From: Flavobacteriales bacterium
Lineage (GTDB): Bacteria > Bacteroidota > Bacteroidia > Flavobacteriales_D > Sanyastnellaceae
Length of the DNA: 50,096 nt
Assembly (NCBI GenBank): GCA_027491215.1
Contig: JAIXWP010000114.1
Span: 1-50,096 of the forward strand
Direction: 5' to 3'
Numbering within the stretch: the first letter of the stretch is position 1; the number at the start of each line of letters is the position of its first letter. The notes below the pieces were generated by a model. It made no database searches, was not told the DNA's origin, and was given only the letters and a program-made list of their open reading frames with translations. This document shows, one piece after another, positions 27,511 to 43,772 of this stretch. A program made the translations under genes and the position numbers.

Positions 27511-28206
27511 ATGAAAAGAAAGGTTGTACAACGACTTTCCATAATTGGAATATTATTCATTGTCGGCTATGTCGGTTATCTCTACCGGTATGAAATCATG
27601 GGGTCATACCGTGATAAATTTGGTTGGGACCTGCCTGAAAATCCTCGTCCTGAGGGAATGTCAACTATCGACTGGGCGGAGCTGAATTACTCTAAACAAA
27701 TGAAAGAGTTGGCGAAGGAATATGATGTTCCCTATTCCTATTTGATGGCGCTGGTAATTCTTGAATGCGGCGGCGACAAGCCAGCAGGGCGTCGATTTGA
27801 GAAACACATCAAAAAGAAATTAGAGAAGGTGAAAAAGGGAACTGTTAATCGCTTGGAGAATGTAAAAGCGTCTCATCTTAATAATTGCGATGATGGTTGT
27901 TTAGAAAATCTTGCCACAAGTTGGGGACCTTTTCAATTGATGGGATACAAGGCTGTTGCATTAGACGCCACTGTAGCGGAGCTTCGCCATGAAGATAAGG
28001 CAGCCGAAATAGGAGTGAAGTGGATCGCAAAAGAGTATGGCCATTTTCTTAGAAAAAAGAAATTCAAAGACGCTTTTCACTACCACAACACTGGTCAGCG
28101 TTTTCCATTATCAGGCAGACCAAAAACACACAGCCCATACTATGTTTCAGATGGGCTGCGGTATATGAAAGAATTTGATAAACGAGAAAAAAACAATCGT
28201 CCTTAG
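27511..28206 (+). CDS. Membrane-anchored lysozyme-like muramidase/transglycosylase
   Basis: 231 residues. One N-terminal membrane segment (~9-24) then a periplasmic domain. 'YSYLMALVILECGGDKPAGRRFE' contains a Glu (~78) placed like the catalytic Glu of lysozyme-fold enzymes. 'SWGPFQLMGYKAVAL' (~137-151) and the C-terminal 'FHYHNTGQRFPL...YVSDGLRYMKEF' fit N-acetylmuramidase/SLT-like folds. It probably cuts peptidoglycan; the specific bond is not deducible. Divergent from the WYL regulator (84 bp). Its TAG stop overlaps the TAA stop of the converging DUF3127 gene. Confidence 0.72.
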   Translation: MKRKVVQRLSIIGILFIVGYVGYLYRYEIMGSYRDKFGWDLPENPRPEGMSTIDWAELNYSKQMKELAKEYDVPYSYLMALVILECGGDKPAGRRFEKHIKKKLEKVKKGTVNRLENVKASHLNNCDDGCLENLATSWGPFQLMGYKAVALDATVAELRHEDKAAEIGVKWIAKEYGHFLRKKKFKDAFHYHNTGQRFPLSGRPKTHSPYYVSDGLRYMKEFDKREKNNRP

Positions 28207-28559
28207 AATGGAAGATCGTCTTCGATTGGATCAGTGATCGTATCAATCGGAGATGGAGGAGGAGGCATATCATTGCCACCCATCGGTGCATTTGCTGAAG
28301 CTCCTAGGTTTTCTATTTTCCAAGCCACAAGACTGTTGAAGTATTTATCTTGCCATTCTCTACCACGAATGTCGAATAACACCTTTACTTTATCACCACT
28401 CTTGAAACCATTCACAAGTGTTGTTTTGTCTTTCAATAATTCGAACATGATATGCTGCGGATATTGATCTTCTGTGCTCAAAACAAATTCTCTTTTTGTG
28501 AAGCCTCCCTTCAATTCTTTTTCATCAAAGATTACTTTGATTTTTCCTGTAATTTCCAT
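28203..28559 (-). CDS. DUF3127 (OB-fold-like) protein with SSB-type acidic C-terminal tip
   Basis: 118 residues. The core (~1-85: 'GKIKVIFDEKELKGGFTKREFVL...GDKVKVLFDIRGREW...YFNSLVAWKIE') is the DUF3127 domain seen in many Bacteroidota and resembling single-stranded-DNA-binding OB folds. It is followed by a Gly/Pro-rich linker and ends DPIEDDLPF, very like the SSB C-terminal tip (DDDIPF in E. coli) that recruits DNA repair and replication proteins. It therefore probably binds nucleic acid and shares SSB partners. It is the last gene of a minus-strand run with the flavin reductase 13 bp upstream. Confidence 0.85.
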   Translation of the reverse strand: MEITGKIKVIFDEKELKGGFTKREFVLSTEDQYPQHIMFELLKDKTTLVNGFKSGDKVKVLFDIRGREWQDKYFNSLVAWKIENLGASANAPMGGNDMPPPPSPIDTITDPIEDDLPF

Positions 28560-28572
28560 TTCTATCGTGATG

Positions 28573-29463
28573 TTAATTGTTGAACGCTAATAGTGTGAGC
28601 CAAGCCTCATGCACGTTTCCTGCATTGAGTAATTCTACCGCTCGGTGGTGTAAAGCCTGCTCTAGTGCCGTCGCATCGTCTTCTAATTCTATAAAAATCT
28701 CCGCGAGTTCTGTAAGTTTATATTCATTCACTGAGGTCTCATCAGGAAGCACTTCTACATTTCCTAATTGGCCCAAATGATTTCCGGAAAGAATTGAAGA
28801 CAGACGAATGTCACTTGGTATTTGATCTACGCCGATTCCCATTTTTTGATTTGGTTTTGCTACTTCAAATAATCCTTGTGAGGCACGCGTGTACCAATCT
28901 CCTCCTAGTCTTGCAACTTGATCAATTTTAAATGGGTCAATTAAGCCATTTTCTCCGATTACTTTTTCATCGATATGCATGCGAAGTACTTCGCAAATAA
29001 CTAAGTTTCCCGCACCACCTTCGGTGCCGAGTTCGATGATTTGATTAACGCGACACTCAAACTGCACTGGTGATTCCGCTACTCGAGGTGGCTTCACCAT
29101 TTCTGAAGGTAATTCTGTAAATCCTGCTTTGACAAATTCATTAATTCCTTCAGGATATTCAACACTTGCCAAAGAGGTCTGCTGTACCATATCGTAGTTA
29201 ACGATATTAATAACGCACTCGCTTACTTTTTTCACATTTTCAAACGTGTGCTTTGTCGTATTGTCGCGTCCTCTCCGCGCTGGAGAGAAGATCAGAATGG
29301 GAGGATTGGCGCTGAATATATTGAAAAAGCTAAACGGCGAAAGATTAACTCTTCCTTGTTCGTCGATGGTGCTTGCGAAGGCAACAGGACGAGGCGCTAC
29401 CGCTCCTTGCAACATCAGTTGCAACTTCATCACCGGAAGTTCTTTCGGATTAATCGTTATCAT
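28573..29463 (-). CDS. Flavin reductase family protein (flavoredoxin-like, FMN-binding split barrel)
   Basis: 296 residues from the ATG at 29463 (MITINPKELPVMKLQ), chosen because the longer frame would overlap purE and adds residues not found in the family. 'GAVAPRPVAFASTIDEQGRVNLSPFSFFN' (~20-48) and 'IVNYDMVQQ' are typical of the DIM6/NTAB flavin reductase family, which binds FMN and passes electrons to partner enzymes. The core is ~205 residues; the remaining ~90, helical and acidic (e.g. 'AEIFIELEDDATALEQALHHRAVELLNAG'), form an extra C-terminal region. It lies 22 bp after purE and 13 bp before the DUF3127 gene, consistent with one transcript, but substrate is unknown. Confidence 0.85.
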   Translation of the reverse strand: MITINPKELPVMKLQLMLQGAVAPRPVAFASTIDEQGRVNLSPFSFFNIFSANPPILIFSPARRGRDNTTKHTFENVKKVSECVINIVNYDMVQQTSLASVEYPEGINEFVKAGFTELPSEMVKPPRVAESPVQFECRVNQIIELGTEGGAGNLVICEVLRMHIDEKVIGENGLIDPFKIDQVARLGGDWYTRASQGLFEVAKPNQKMGIGVDQIPSDIRLSSILSGNHLGQLGNVEVLPDETSVNEYKLTELAEIFIELEDDATALEQALHHRAVELLNAGNVHEAWLTLLAFNN

Positions 29464-29485
29464 TTTTTTTATAAAAGAGAAAAGC

Positions 29486-29980
29486 TTAAGGACGAATGTT
29501 TCCATTCTCGTCAAGACTTTCCATTACTTTTTTCTTTAAGTCTTCTTTGAAGTCTACAATGCGCTGGAGCAAAAGATCATCTCCACTTGCAAGGATCTGC
29601 GCGGCGAGAATGCCTGCATTTCTTGCACCATTTAATGCGACTGTTGCCACAGGAACACCTGCAGGCATTTGAAGAATAGATAATACGCTATCCCATCCGT
29701 CGATAGAGTTGGATGAATGAATAGGAACTCCGATAACAGGAAGTGGCGACATTGATGCTGCCATTCCTGGTAAATGCGCTGCTCCACCGGCACCTGCAAT
29801 AATTACACGCAATCCACGTTGGTGCGCATTTTTTGCATAGTCAAACAATCGTTCTGGAGTGCGGTGTGCACTTACTACCGTCATTTCATAGGGCACATTC
29901 AAAGAATCAAGCACATCCGCAGCTTGTTGCATGATGTTCAAGTCACTTTTGCTCCCCATGATAATTCCAACTTTGGCCAT
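29486..29980 (-). CDS. purE: 5-(carboxyamino)imidazole ribonucleotide mutase
   Basis: 164 residues, the usual size of class I PurE. It converts N5-CAIR to CAIR in purine synthesis and forms an octamer. Diagnostic motifs are GSKSDLNIMQQA (~9-20), SAHRTPERLFDYA (~40-52) and IAGAGGAAHLPGMAAS (~66-81). purK is not next to it. Its start is 10 bp after the stop of a nucleoside transporter gene, so purine synthesis and nucleoside uptake may be co-transcribed. Confidence 0.97.
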   Translation of the reverse strand: MAKVGIIMGSKSDLNIMQQAADVLDSLNVPYEMTVVSAHRTPERLFDYAKNAHQRGLRVIIAGAGGAAHLPGMAASMSPLPVIGVPIHSSNSIDGWDSVLSILQMPAGVPVATVALNGARNAGILAAQILASGDDLLLQRIVDFKEDLKKKVMESLDENGNIRP

Positions 29981-41277: not shown

Positions 41278-43686
41278 CTACGAAGTGAATTCGCTGATGG
41301 GCCTTGTGCTGTAATTCAACAAAGCAAAACGAATGCTCTTTTCCGTGCGTTCAAGAATTGTCTCAAAATCCTTGATATCAGAGGTGTGGCAGAGCAGGTC
41401 TTCCAATAACTGGAGCTCTTGTTCGGACCACTTCATACCTGTTCTTCTCGGAGTGGATTCGCTTCCAGACATGCGATCTTTGTCAGGCAAGGGGAGTGCT
41501 TTCGCTTTTTCTTGGAAAAAAAGAAGATCTTTCTCACTCAATTTACGATCGCCTAATTTTCTGAGAAACGTATCTGTTGTTGTCACTACTTGCTGTTGCT
41601 TCTCGTCCTGAATTTGATTTGTAACCGGCTCTACATAATTGCGCAGTTTTTCAAAAAGCTCTTTCACTTTGAATTCATCTCTGAGGATGCCGTAAAAAGA
41701 AACTTTTGTTGCAAACGGTTCAAATTTCTCATCCTGACTTCCTAATAATAATTTCGTGAGGGCAGTTGTGCTCAAAGGAATTTGTAGCGCCTTCATTTCA
41801 TCAATATAGGCTTGTATTGCAGCAGGAGCGAGGGCCTTTTCAACATTTACTTTGGGCTTGTAGGGAACAGGGCTATTCTTTACAATCAAATCCAAAAAGT
41901 TGTATCCGTACTTGTTGAATTTGTGTTCACTCATTCCTGATATCTCTAGCATTTCATCCATCGTCAATGGCAGTCTTTCAACCATTGCGTGCAATGTGCT
42001 ATCATGGAAAATTACGTAAGGAGGAACATCCTCAATGGAGGCCAAACGCTTGCGGTGTGCGCGTAATTCTTCAAACAGCGTAGAAGACTTATCGGATAGC
42101 ACAGCAGTCGTTTTTTTCTCAGCTGTTTTTTTCTTCTCAGGTGCTACATACTCTTGTGGTTTGATGAGATCAACTGTGAATTGATTCTTCAAAATCATAT
42201 CTCCGAAAGGTGTTATTTCAAGCGCATTTCCTGTTTCATAAAGAAGATGCATGGCACCCACCTGAATCATTTGAAGCACATAATAATTCCATTCTTGATA
42301 GCTCAAATCTTTTCCCGCACCGTATGTTTTGATGGTCTGTAAATTCTTCTCAATAATCTCATGCTGCTGTGATCCACGAAGCACATTAATCAAAAGCGGC
42401 ACCGTTAGTTTTTGTTGAATTGTTTCTGCTCTTCGAATCGCGGAAAGCGCTTTTTGTGTGAGTATCGTTCCATCAAAGTGGGAGGGTGGATTCTTACAAA
42501 CGTCGCAGTTACCACAGTTTTCACGCAAGTTTTCGCCAAAATAATTCAGCAATACTTTTCTTCTGCAAATGCGCGACTCCGCAAATTCTTGCATGCGGTT
42601 GAGTTTCTCCACATTCACTTGCTGAGCACCGCTTTCATCAGCGAACTGTCGAAGCAATATCAAGTCACCAAAAGACCAGTAGAGTCGCGTAAAGCAAGGC
42701 ATGCCGTCTCGTCCGCCGCGTCCAATTTCTTGGTAGTAGCTTTCGATTGTTTTTGGCAAATTATAATGTAAAACAAAACGAACATTGCTCTTGTCGATCC
42801 CCATGCCGAAGGCGATAGTGGCACAGACCACTTGAATTTCATCGCGAATAAAATCCTCTTGAATCTTGCTTCGTTGCTCGCTATTCATTCCCGCGTGATA
42901 GTATGCAGCCTTCACTCCCGCATGCTGAAGTTCTCCTGCCAGTGCTTCTGTATTTTTCTTAGAAGTGCAATAAATAATTCCAGAGCTGTTGGGGTGTTGC
43001 TCTAATACATCGAGAATATCCTTGAATTTTTCCTTCGCCTTCAAACCAAACTTCACAGATAGCTGGAGATTGGGACGGTCGAAAGAAGAGATGAAAACTT
43101 CAGGAGTATTGAGTCCGAGGAATTCGAGAATATCTTTTTGAGTGAGGCGATCCGCAGTGGCCGTGAGCGCCATCATCGTTGCATTTGGATGATGGTTTCT
43201 CAATTGATGCAGCTGTTTGTATTCCGGTCTAAAATCGTGTCCCCACGAAGAAATACAGTGCGCTTCGTCGATAGCGATGAGATCGACAGGCAATGATTTC
43301 AAAAACCAATCAGCAGAAGCAATTGCTTTTTCTGGAGAGATATAGAGGATTTTAATTTCCCCCATTCTGCAGAGTTTCGAAATATTATCCGCTTGTGAGT
43401 TGGTGAGCGAACTGTTGAGGAACGCCGCTTTGATGCCGTTGGCCACGAGCGTATCCACCTGATCTTTCATCAAAGAAATGAGAGGAGAAATGACCAGCGT
43501 AATTCCAGGCAATAGGAGGGCAGGAACTTGATAGCATAAGCTTTTTCCGCCGCCCGTGGGCATGAGAACAAAGGCGTCTCTTTTGGAGAGCACCGTGTTA
43601 ATGATGTCTTCTTGTTGCGGACGAAACGTCTCGTAACCGAAATGTTTTTTTAGTACTTCTTGCGCTTTTGTCATCTGATCCTCCAT
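41278..43686 (-). CDS. recQ: ATP-dependent DNA helicase RecQ
   Basis: 802 residues from the ATG at 43686 (MEDQMTKAQEV); the in-frame TTG at 43710 is not used, because a TACTTTG promoter-like sequence lies between. Order of parts: DEAH helicase core with MPTGGGKSLCYQVP (~46) and DEAHCISSWGHDFRPEY; helicase C domain with 'AFGMGIDKSNVRFVLHY' and 'YYQEIGRGGRDG'; zinc site CRRKVLLNYFGE...CGNCDVC; RQC winged helix; HRDC (~590-650); then a C-terminal extension with an HTH-like region (~680-740) and a last helical block (~755-800). The enzyme unwinds DNA in recombination and repair. The length, above E. coli RecQ (~610), is usual for Bacteroidota. Confidence 0.94.
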   Translation of the reverse strand: MEDQMTKAQEVLKKHFGYETFRPQQEDIINTVLSKRDAFVLMPTGGGKSLCYQVPALLLPGITLVISPLISLMKDQVDTLVANGIKAAFLNSSLTNSQADNISKLCRMGEIKILYISPEKAIASADWFLKSLPVDLIAIDEAHCISSWGHDFRPEYKQLHQLRNHHPNATMMALTATADRLTQKDILEFLGLNTPEVFISSFDRPNLQLSVKFGLKAKEKFKDILDVLEQHPNSSGIIYCTSKKNTEALAGELQHAGVKAAYYHAGMNSEQRSKIQEDFIRDEIQVVCATIAFGMGIDKSNVRFVLHYNLPKTIESYYQEIGRGGRDGMPCFTRLYWSFGDLILLRQFADESGAQQVNVEKLNRMQEFAESRICRRKVLLNYFGENLRENCGNCDVCKNPPSHFDGTILTQKALSAIRRAETIQQKLTVPLLINVLRGSQQHEIIEKNLQTIKTYGAGKDLSYQEWNYYVLQMIQVGAMHLLYETGNALEITPFGDMILKNQFTVDLIKPQEYVAPEKKKTAEKKTTAVLSDKSSTLFEELRAHRKRLASIEDVPPYVIFHDSTLHAMVERLPLTMDEMLEISGMSEHKFNKYGYNFLDLIVKNSPVPYKPKVNVEKALAPAAIQAYIDEMKALQIPLSTTALTKLLLGSQDEKFEPFATKVSFYGILRDEFKVKELFEKLRNYVEPVTNQIQDEKQQQVVTTTDTFLRKLGDRKLSEKDLLFFQEKAKALPLPDKDRMSGSESTPRRTGMKWSEQELQLLEDLLCHTSDIKDFETILERTEKSIRFALLNYSTRPISEFTS

Positions 43687-43772
43687 TGCGATGCAAAGTA
43701 CAATCAACAACTTGGAATATCCTATTCCAGTTTAACAACCGAATATTCACAGAATAACAACAAGATATGATG

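What the first reader, a model, noticed from the sequence alone, without database searches (positions are those of the whole stretch)
28203..28559. DUF3127 protein ending in an SSB-like C-terminal tip
The small OB-fold-like protein ends with a flexible Gly/Pro linker and EDDLPF, nearly the same as the SSB tip (DDDIPF) which recruits RecQ, PriA, RecO, exonuclease I and others. This suggests a second protein in these bacteria that can dock SSB partners, or compete for them; this window even encodes RecQ, a classical SSB-tip client. It could be a specialised ssDNA- or RNA-binding protein.
Basis: partly seen in the sequence, partly recalled or inferred. Interest (0 to 1): 0.6.

Follow-up and report, generated by a model that had tools for sequence, protein, structure and literature searches.

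The report
Second SSB-like protein of Bacteroidota

Summary
Window 28203-28559 (-) encodes a 118-aa DUF3127 protein (PF11325, 1e-30) ending EDDLPF. All 140 chromosomal homologues read from sampled genomes end in Pro-Phe, while the linker before the tip is close to random. Of 716 neighbouring genes with their own stop, 2 end in PF. The genome's own SSB ends DDDLPF, and all 51 Bacteroidota SSBs read end DDLPF.

With 87 homologues the core is predicted as an OB fold (pLDDT 94-98 over residues 1-80). The 50 PDB matches shown by Foldseek are all SSB-type proteins or PriB.

DUF3127 is present in 96 of 98 genomes of the class (hand count), beside canonical SSB (392 of 395 in the phylum). Bacteriophages carry it near RecT, exonuclease, primase-helicase and NinG/NinB genes. 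None of 42 such phage records searched has a canonical SSB over cut-off. PHROGs already names the phage family 'single strand DNA binding protein'.

Best reading: a second SSB-like ssDNA-binding protein that docks SSB clients through the shared tip. Binding to ssDNA and to clients is inferred, not shown.

The parts
28203..28559 (-). DUF3127 gene, 118 aa plus stop
   Evidence: PF11325 1.1e-30, 106 bits, cut-off 27; phrog_4932 'single strand DNA binding protein' 5e-31 over residues 1-118
28302..28559 (-). OB-fold core, residues 1-86; conserved aromatics Y33, W69, Y73, F74, W80
   Evidence: AlphaFold with 87 homologues: block means of pLDDT 94-98 for residues 1-80 and 77 for 81-90; strands 2-10, 21-28, 36-42, helix 43-49, strands 57-69, 72-86; Foldseek and VIA-align matches to SSB and PriB; aromatic conservation
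28224..28301 (-). Gly/Pro-rich disordered linker, residues 87-112
   Evidence: block means of pLDDT 51-60, under 50 at 88-96; about 3.0-3.7 bits entropy per position across 120 homologues
28206..28223 (-). SSB-type acidic tip EDDLPF, residues 113-118
   Evidence: P and F invariant in 120 of 120 and a further 20 of 20 chromosomal homologues; the genome's own SSB ends DDDLPF
28573..29514 (-). Flavin-reductase-domain gene directly upstream, same strand, probably one operon
   Evidence: PF01613 4.7e-19; same neighbour in 118 of 200 chromosomal loci, nearly always as the first upstream gene, median gap 31 bp

Best explanation
[quoted passage not shown] Its OB-fold core binds ssDNA through a set of conserved aromatic residues. 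Its flexible linker presents a C-terminal tip that is the same as the tip of the host's own SSB, so that it can dock the same client proteins (RecO, PriA, RecQ, exonucleases and the like) onto the DNA it covers. In the host it works beside SSB, probably on a subset of ssDNA such as recombination or repair intermediates. Phages of these bacteria use the gene, probably taken more than once, as their own SSB in the recombination and replication module. Shown here: fold (by prediction), anatomy, tip conservation, co-existence with SSB, phage context. Inferred: ssDNA binding, client docking, division of labour.
For: Tip: P and F invariant in 140 of 140 chromosomal homologues of the sampled genomes against 2 of 716 neighbouring genes ending in PF. 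In E. coli these two residues matter for client binding (PMC10164576, passages read: loss of the last Phe removes binding to clients, Pro to Ser weakens it). Same tip in host SSB: 51 of 51 SSBs read end DDLPF (one per genome, best-scoring or listed ones).

Fold: core pLDDT 94-98 over residues 1-80, OB topology. Foldseek: 135 PDB chains at E <= 0.001, and the 50 rows shown are all SSB-type proteins or PriB. VIA-align Z 12.0 to mitochondrial SSB Rim1, 11.4 to PriB, 11.2 to Salinibacter SSB.

Sequence: the canonical SSB model PF00436 gives sub-cut-off matches in 9 of 42 phage records, and all 9 lie inside the DUF3127 gene. hhalign of cores alone, with alignment A3, gives P 9e-4 against SSB, the best score of 26 families compared.

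Aromatics: position 69, aligned with a Trp of SSB, is W, Y or F in 120 of 120, 80 of 80 and 79 of 80 rows.

Phages: within four genes on either side of 80 viral loci (572 ORFs) the commonest clusters are, by one representative each, primosomal or replication-initiation protein (20 loci), RecT (17), an unknown family (16), primase-helicase (15), DNA methyltransferase (15), exonuclease (12, and a second cluster of 7), NinG (12), helicase (7), NinB/Orf (6). 0 of 42 phage records have PF00436 over cut-off. The PHROGs family and RefSeq phage records already carry the SSB name.

Core gene: 96 of 98 class genomes (hand count), and its tree follows host families (29 changes, least possible 24, shuffled mean 93).
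Against: No binding assay exists in what I could read. The protein does not match PF00436 at E 0.001. Core-only sequence similarity to SSB is weak: hhalign probability 23% with A3; with the more diverse A1 it is 4%, score 18.7, which is below the best of the 25 control families scored with A3 (20.9). With tails the probability is 94-95%, so the tip carries much of it. The profile match to D. radiodurans SSB (E 0.0057) rests on several weak pieces, the tip among them; its best core piece alone has i-Evalue 4. In six genomes without a DUF3127 match the DUF3127 profile picked the SSB gene in two, but these are of one genus and the match includes the tip; the other four gave nothing or a chance match.

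The tip varies more than that of SSB: 6 of 120 have a residue other than L, I, V or M before PF, and the 20 further g60 loci have Cys there. Four genomes whose DUF3127 ends HDVPF keep DDLPF on SSB. Four of 80 phage forms have no tail.

The conserved chromosomal neighbour is a flavin-reductase gene, not a DNA-repair gene; in two loci (L154, L156) a DEAD-box RNA-helicase gene follows on the same strand, which would fit an RNA role. Lack of SSB is certain only for the four complete phage records; the 38 virus contigs (of 80) may be fragments.
Confidence: 0.75

Rival explanations
1. A PriB-like helper: an OB-fold protein derived from SSB that works in the primosome at replication restart, contacting PriA and ssDNA, rather than a general ssDNA coat.
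For: PriB structures are among the best matches (Z 11.4; 1woc). Phage copies often sit near primosomal or replication-initiation genes (20 of 80 loci).
Against: PriB, as I recall it, has no acidic tail with a PF tip; here that is the most conserved part of the protein. Z values for SSB and PriB are tied.
Confidence: 0.12
2. A tip-bearing decoy or regulator: it does not cover ssDNA in the cell (or binds RNA) and acts by occupying SSB clients, lowering SSB-dependent recruitment.
For: Same tip as SSB in the same cell; the commonest chromosomal neighbours are not DNA-repair genes; a DEAD-box RNA-helicase gene follows in two loci.
Against: Aromatic positions of the OB core are conserved. Phages keep it in recombination modules and the 42 records searched show no canonical SSB over cut-off, which fits an active SSB. 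phrog_4932 is classed as SSB.
Confidence: 0.08
3. The acidic tail serves only the protein itself (it shields the DNA-binding face or aids solubility) and docks no client.
For: Acidic tips of SSB are known to compete for the protein's own DNA-binding face (PMC7145534, passages read).
Against: Self-shielding should need acid rather than an invariant C-terminal Pro-Phe; the acidic positions vary while P and F do not.
Confidence: 0.05

Closest known systems
Bacterial SSB (PF00436), e.g. E. coli SSB and this genome's own SSB (G000:C55)
   Same: OB-fold core, disordered Gly/Pro linker, acidic tip ending in Pro-Phe; tip nearly identical to the host SSB's
   Different: Not recognised by PF00436 over cut-off; present beside SSB, not in place of it in the host
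phrog_4932 phage SSB family / DUF3127 phage proteins (Cellulophaga phi18:3, Flavobacterium Fpv5, Tenacibaculum Gundel_1)
   Same: Same family, full-length match including the tip
   Different: Phage gene in a recombination module; here a chromosomal gene found in nearly all genomes of the class
SsbB of Streptococcus pneumoniae and Bacillus subtilis (alternative SSB)
   Same: A second SSB beside the main one; in the pneumococcus the acidic tail was studied by truncation (PMC3128108, abstract read)
   Different: SsbB is expressed only in competence (same abstract) and, as I recall, is a canonical PF00436 paralogue; DUF3127 is another family, its expression unknown to me
PriB
   Same: OB fold of SSB type, structural match Z 11.4
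   Different: No PF tip (recalled)

Membership tests
DUF3127 (PF11325) | Match over the curated cut-off of 27 bits | tested here: met
   106.1 bits, 1.1e-30, residues 2-83
phrog_4932, phage single strand DNA binding protein | Full-length profile match | tested here: met
   5e-31, residues 1-118 to profile 1-117; function of that family not tested
Canonical SSB (PF00436) | Match to PF00436 over its cut-off | tested here: not met
   Not among matches at E 0.001 for this protein; related phage proteins match only below cut-off
Canonical SSB (PF00436) | OB-fold DNA-binding domain | tested here: met
   AlphaFold model with Foldseek E 6e-6 and VIA-align Z 11-12 to SSBs; predicted, not solved
Canonical SSB (PF00436) | Disordered linker and acidic tip ending Pro-Phe | tested here: met
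   PF end in 120 of 120 and 20 of 20 further chromosomal homologues; at least one acid in the three residues before xPF in 120 of 120
Canonical SSB (PF00436) | ssDNA binding, oligomerisation, client docking | not testable with these tools
   Needs purified protein
Canonical SSB (PF00436) | Being the cell's only SSB-type gene | tested here: not met
   Own genome has a separate PF00436 gene; 392 of 395 phylum genomes have PF00436
PriB | SSB-type OB fold | tested here: met
   Z 11.4 to 1woc, tied with SSBs
PriB | No acidic PF tail (recalled) | tested here: not met
   Tail and tip present

The most novel reading that the evidence does not exclude
Bacteroidia run two SSB hubs with the same docking tip: SSB and the DUF3127 protein share one set of clients and divide ssDNA between them. 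Phages of this phylum have captured the second hub, more than once, as their SSB, so that the invading DNA recruits the host's RecO, PriA, RecQ and the like through a tip the host cannot change without breaking its own.
Probability: 0.35. Interest if true: 0.75.

Novelty: new variant of a known kind. Interest (0 to 1): 0.55.

Why it matters
SSB is a hub of bacterial DNA maintenance, and its tip recruits at least 17 partners in E. coli (PMC7145534, abstract and passages seen). A near-universal second protein with the same tip in a whole class would mean that tip-based recruitment in these bacteria cannot be read from SSB alone. The Pfam name says 'unknown function' while the phage family is already called SSB; joining the two gives a directly testable function to a widely kept gene. 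One paper in the held library names DUF3127 (further searches found no study of the bacterial protein), and it is about a Pantoea phage whose SSB carries the domain.

Tried and rejected
Folding the protein without homologues gave a useless model (mean pLDDT 45.8); the alignment of 87 gave 85.7. phmmer of the protein alone against the PDB found nothing meaningful.

DUF3127 as a replacement for SSB in the host: rejected, as SSB is present in 392 of 395 genomes. Two of the three without a match (G024, G220) have DUF3127, but other members of their families have SSB, so assembly gaps are likelier.

A phage remnant in the window: rejected for the host gene, which is near-universal in the class, tracks host families and has a conserved flavin-reductase neighbour.

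RecQ: distance in this window is no evidence.

Control recounted: the 817 neighbouring ORFs include 101 cut by the end of a locus, which have no true C-terminus; the count is now on 716.

DUF3127 and a second SSB copy excluding each other: a hand tally by family outside the class (10 of 12 families with DUF3127 have one SSB, 14 of 27 without; families with both kinds of genome left out) gave Fisher p 0.083. It is post hoc and confounded by descent, so not used.

The host-and-phage tree needs 21 label changes, but well-supported branches force only 3 (93 columns, 179 rows left of 284 after thinning at 85% identity), so the number of captures is not known.

Full report
What is there. The interval holds one gene on the minus strand, 118 codons and a stop. 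The protein matches DUF3127 (PF11325) at 1.1e-30 and the phage family phrog_4932, named 'single strand DNA binding protein', at 5e-31 over its whole length, tip included. NCBIfam gives only weak matches, to replication factor A models (best 5e-4). The genome has one copy and one canonical SSB gene (PF00436), whose product ends DDDLPF.

Is the tip more than chance? I read 120 chromosomal homologues: all 58 matches in a sample of 60 genomes of the order, 56 of which had a match, and 62 from a sample of 395 genomes of the phylum in which 222 had a match. The 62 are the 30 best by score and 32 picked for spread; the weakest matches were not read. All 120 end in PF, 108 in LPF, 87 in DDLPF; the linker before the tip has about 3.0-3.7 bits of entropy per position. 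Twenty further loci of genus g60 all end in PF too, with Cys before it. In 80 loci with organism names (best 80 of 583; by their titles mostly Flavobacteriia, six under Verrucomicrobiota names) 79 end in PF, and in 80 phage loci (best 80 of 575) 72 do. Over these sets DDLPF is written by 85 different DNA words in 198 genes. Of 716 neighbouring ORFs with their own stop 2 end in PF and none in [LIVM]PF. Canonical SSBs of the phylum end DDLPF in 51 of 51 read. The two proteins thus carry the same tip in the same cells. DUF3127 varies somewhat more: four genomes whose DUF3127 ends HDVPF have SSB ending DDLPF.

What fold? With 87 homologues AlphaFold gives an OB fold, pLDDT block means 94-98 for residues 1-80, and a tail of low confidence. 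Foldseek finds 135 PDB chains at E 0.001 or better; the 50 shown are SSB, SsbA, SsbB, Rim1 and PriB. VIA-align gives Z 12.0 (Rim1), 11.4 (PriB), 11.2 (Salinibacter SSB), ties within 1. BFVD gives DUF3127 phage proteins, phage SSBs and many unnamed proteins. Sequence support for kinship with SSB is weaker but points the same way: PF00436 touches 9 of 42 phage records below cut-off, each time inside the DUF3127 gene; the DUF3127 profile, run on six genomes that had no DUF3127 match, picks the SSB gene in two of one genus, nothing in three, and a chance-level match in one; hhalign without the tails gives P 9e-4 against SSB, best of 26 families, but a probability of only 23%, and 4% with the more diverse alignment. 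With the tails the probability is 94-95%, so the tip carries much of that score. The profile match to D. radiodurans SSB (E 0.0057) is of the same mixed kind. Five aromatic positions (33, 69, 73, 74, 80) are conserved across host and phage rows, with His at 73 in 4 of 120 and at 69 in 1 of 80 phage rows; position 69 aligns with a Trp of SSB that I recall as a DNA-contacting residue in E. coli SSB.

Where does it occur? By the kinship labels, 96 of 98 genomes of the class have it (my hand count; G292 and G391 lack it also with the profile A1), most of them once; outside the class it is patchy. SSB is in 392 of 395, so DUF3127 is an addition. The host tree follows families: 29 changes for 25 groups, least possible 24, shuffled mean 93 (few columns, many forks unresolved). 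It is therefore an old, mostly vertically inherited gene of the class.

Phages. 128 of 50,697 phage records have a homologue, mostly phages of Flavobacterium (79), Polaribacter (17) and Cellulophaga (13); several RefSeq copies are named single strand DNA binding protein. In phi18:3 it lies within 5 kb of RecT, DnaA-like and DnaD-like genes, in Fpv5 within 6 kb of RusA, replication-initiation and DNA-polymerase genes, in Gundel_1 two genes from NinG, in tooticki6-1 within 4 kb of primase-helicase and NinG. In 80 virus contigs the commonest neighbour clusters within four genes are primosomal or replication-initiation protein (20 loci), RecT (17), an unknown family (16), primase-helicase (15), DNA methyltransferase (15), exonuclease (12 and 7), NinG (12), helicase (7), NinB/Orf (6) (names from one representative each; two clusters of 9 and 8 loci had no match). 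None of 42 records (4 complete phages and 38 of the 80 virus contigs, which may be fragments) has PF00436 over cut-off; a local SSB profile found only DUF3127 genes in the held parts of the 80 contigs (3 hits at E 0.01). This is the place and the gap that a phage SSB would fill. Host and phage rows are mixed in the tree: at least 3 well-supported changes, 21 on the best tree.

How it most likely works. The OB core coats or grips ssDNA; the linker (median 25 residues, range 4-42; the E. coli SSB minimum was put at 11-20 residues in PMC10164576, passage) holds the tip free; the tip docks clients. In E. coli the binding pocket takes the last Phe, the alpha-carboxyl and the Asp side chains; losing Phe removes and Pro to Ser weakens binding (PMC10164576, passages). 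Those two residues are the two invariant ones here. Steps shown: anatomy, conservation, predicted fold, genomic context. Steps inferred: ssDNA binding, client docking, division of labour with SSB.

The RecQ point. The window's RecQ (41278-43710, minus) is a normal RecQ by its domains. In the alignment with E. coli RecQ residue R425 is kept, R503 is Lys and R499 is Asp; that these three form the SSB pocket is recalled, not looked up. Its distance of 13 kb is no argument. In other genomes recQ does lie next to DUF3127: directly upstream, same strand, in 6 of 24 loci of genus g60, and two genes away, divergent, in 3 loci of family f66. These are few and related, so I count them as a hint only. 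Two further loci (L154, L156) have a DEAD-box RNA-helicase gene directly downstream.

What is known. PHROGs and RefSeq call the phage proteins SSB; Pfam calls the domain unknown. In the library, DUF3127 occurs in one paper (PMC8004638, passages read), where a Pantoea phage SSB matches both an SSB model and DUF3127. Searches found no study of the bacterial protein; most subscription-journal papers are not held. I therefore rate this a new variant of a known kind: SSB-like in anatomy, outside the SSB family by the model's cut-off, and kept by nearly a whole bacterial class.

Noticed in passing
28573-29514 (-) and loci: A flavin-reductase-domain gene (PF01613) lies upstream on the same strand in 118 of 200 chromosomal loci, nearly always as the first gene, median gap 31 bp. 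Why a DNA-binding protein should share an operon with it is unexplained.
   Followed up: partly
L353, L354, L355, L359, L362, L070: In 6 of 24 loci of genus g60 a recQ gene lies directly upstream of DUF3127 on the same strand: a possible natural pair for testing tip docking.
   Followed up: partly
L154:5366-6595 and L156:3809-5026: A DEAD-box RNA-helicase gene directly downstream of DUF3127 on the same strand in two loci.
   Followed up: no
L192:5442-6140 and 74 other loci: Leucyl/phenylalanyl-tRNA-protein transferase gene (PF03588) within three genes downstream of DUF3127 on the same strand in 75 of 200 loci, by titles mostly Flavobacteriaceae.
   Followed up: no
27511-28206 (+): Convergent gene whose end overlaps the DUF3127 stop by 4 bases; only a weak match to N-acetylmuramidase (PF11860, E 0.12).
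   Followed up: no
L259, L265, L270, L285: Four of 80 phage DUF3127 proteins stop at the end of the OB core and show no tail in any frame after the stop; possible tipless phage variants.
   Followed up: partly
L107 (G045:C12): A second, shorter DUF3127 copy with almost no linker and ending DQPF on a 13.7-kb contig; perhaps a mobile copy.
   Followed up: no
G024, G136, G220: Three of 395 phylum genomes show no PF00436 SSB; two of them have DUF3127. Probably assembly gaps, as other members of their families have SSB.
   Followed up: no
phylum sample, outside the class: Families without DUF3127 tend to have two SSB copies more often (hand tally, Fisher p 0.083); a post hoc trend only.
   Followed up: partly
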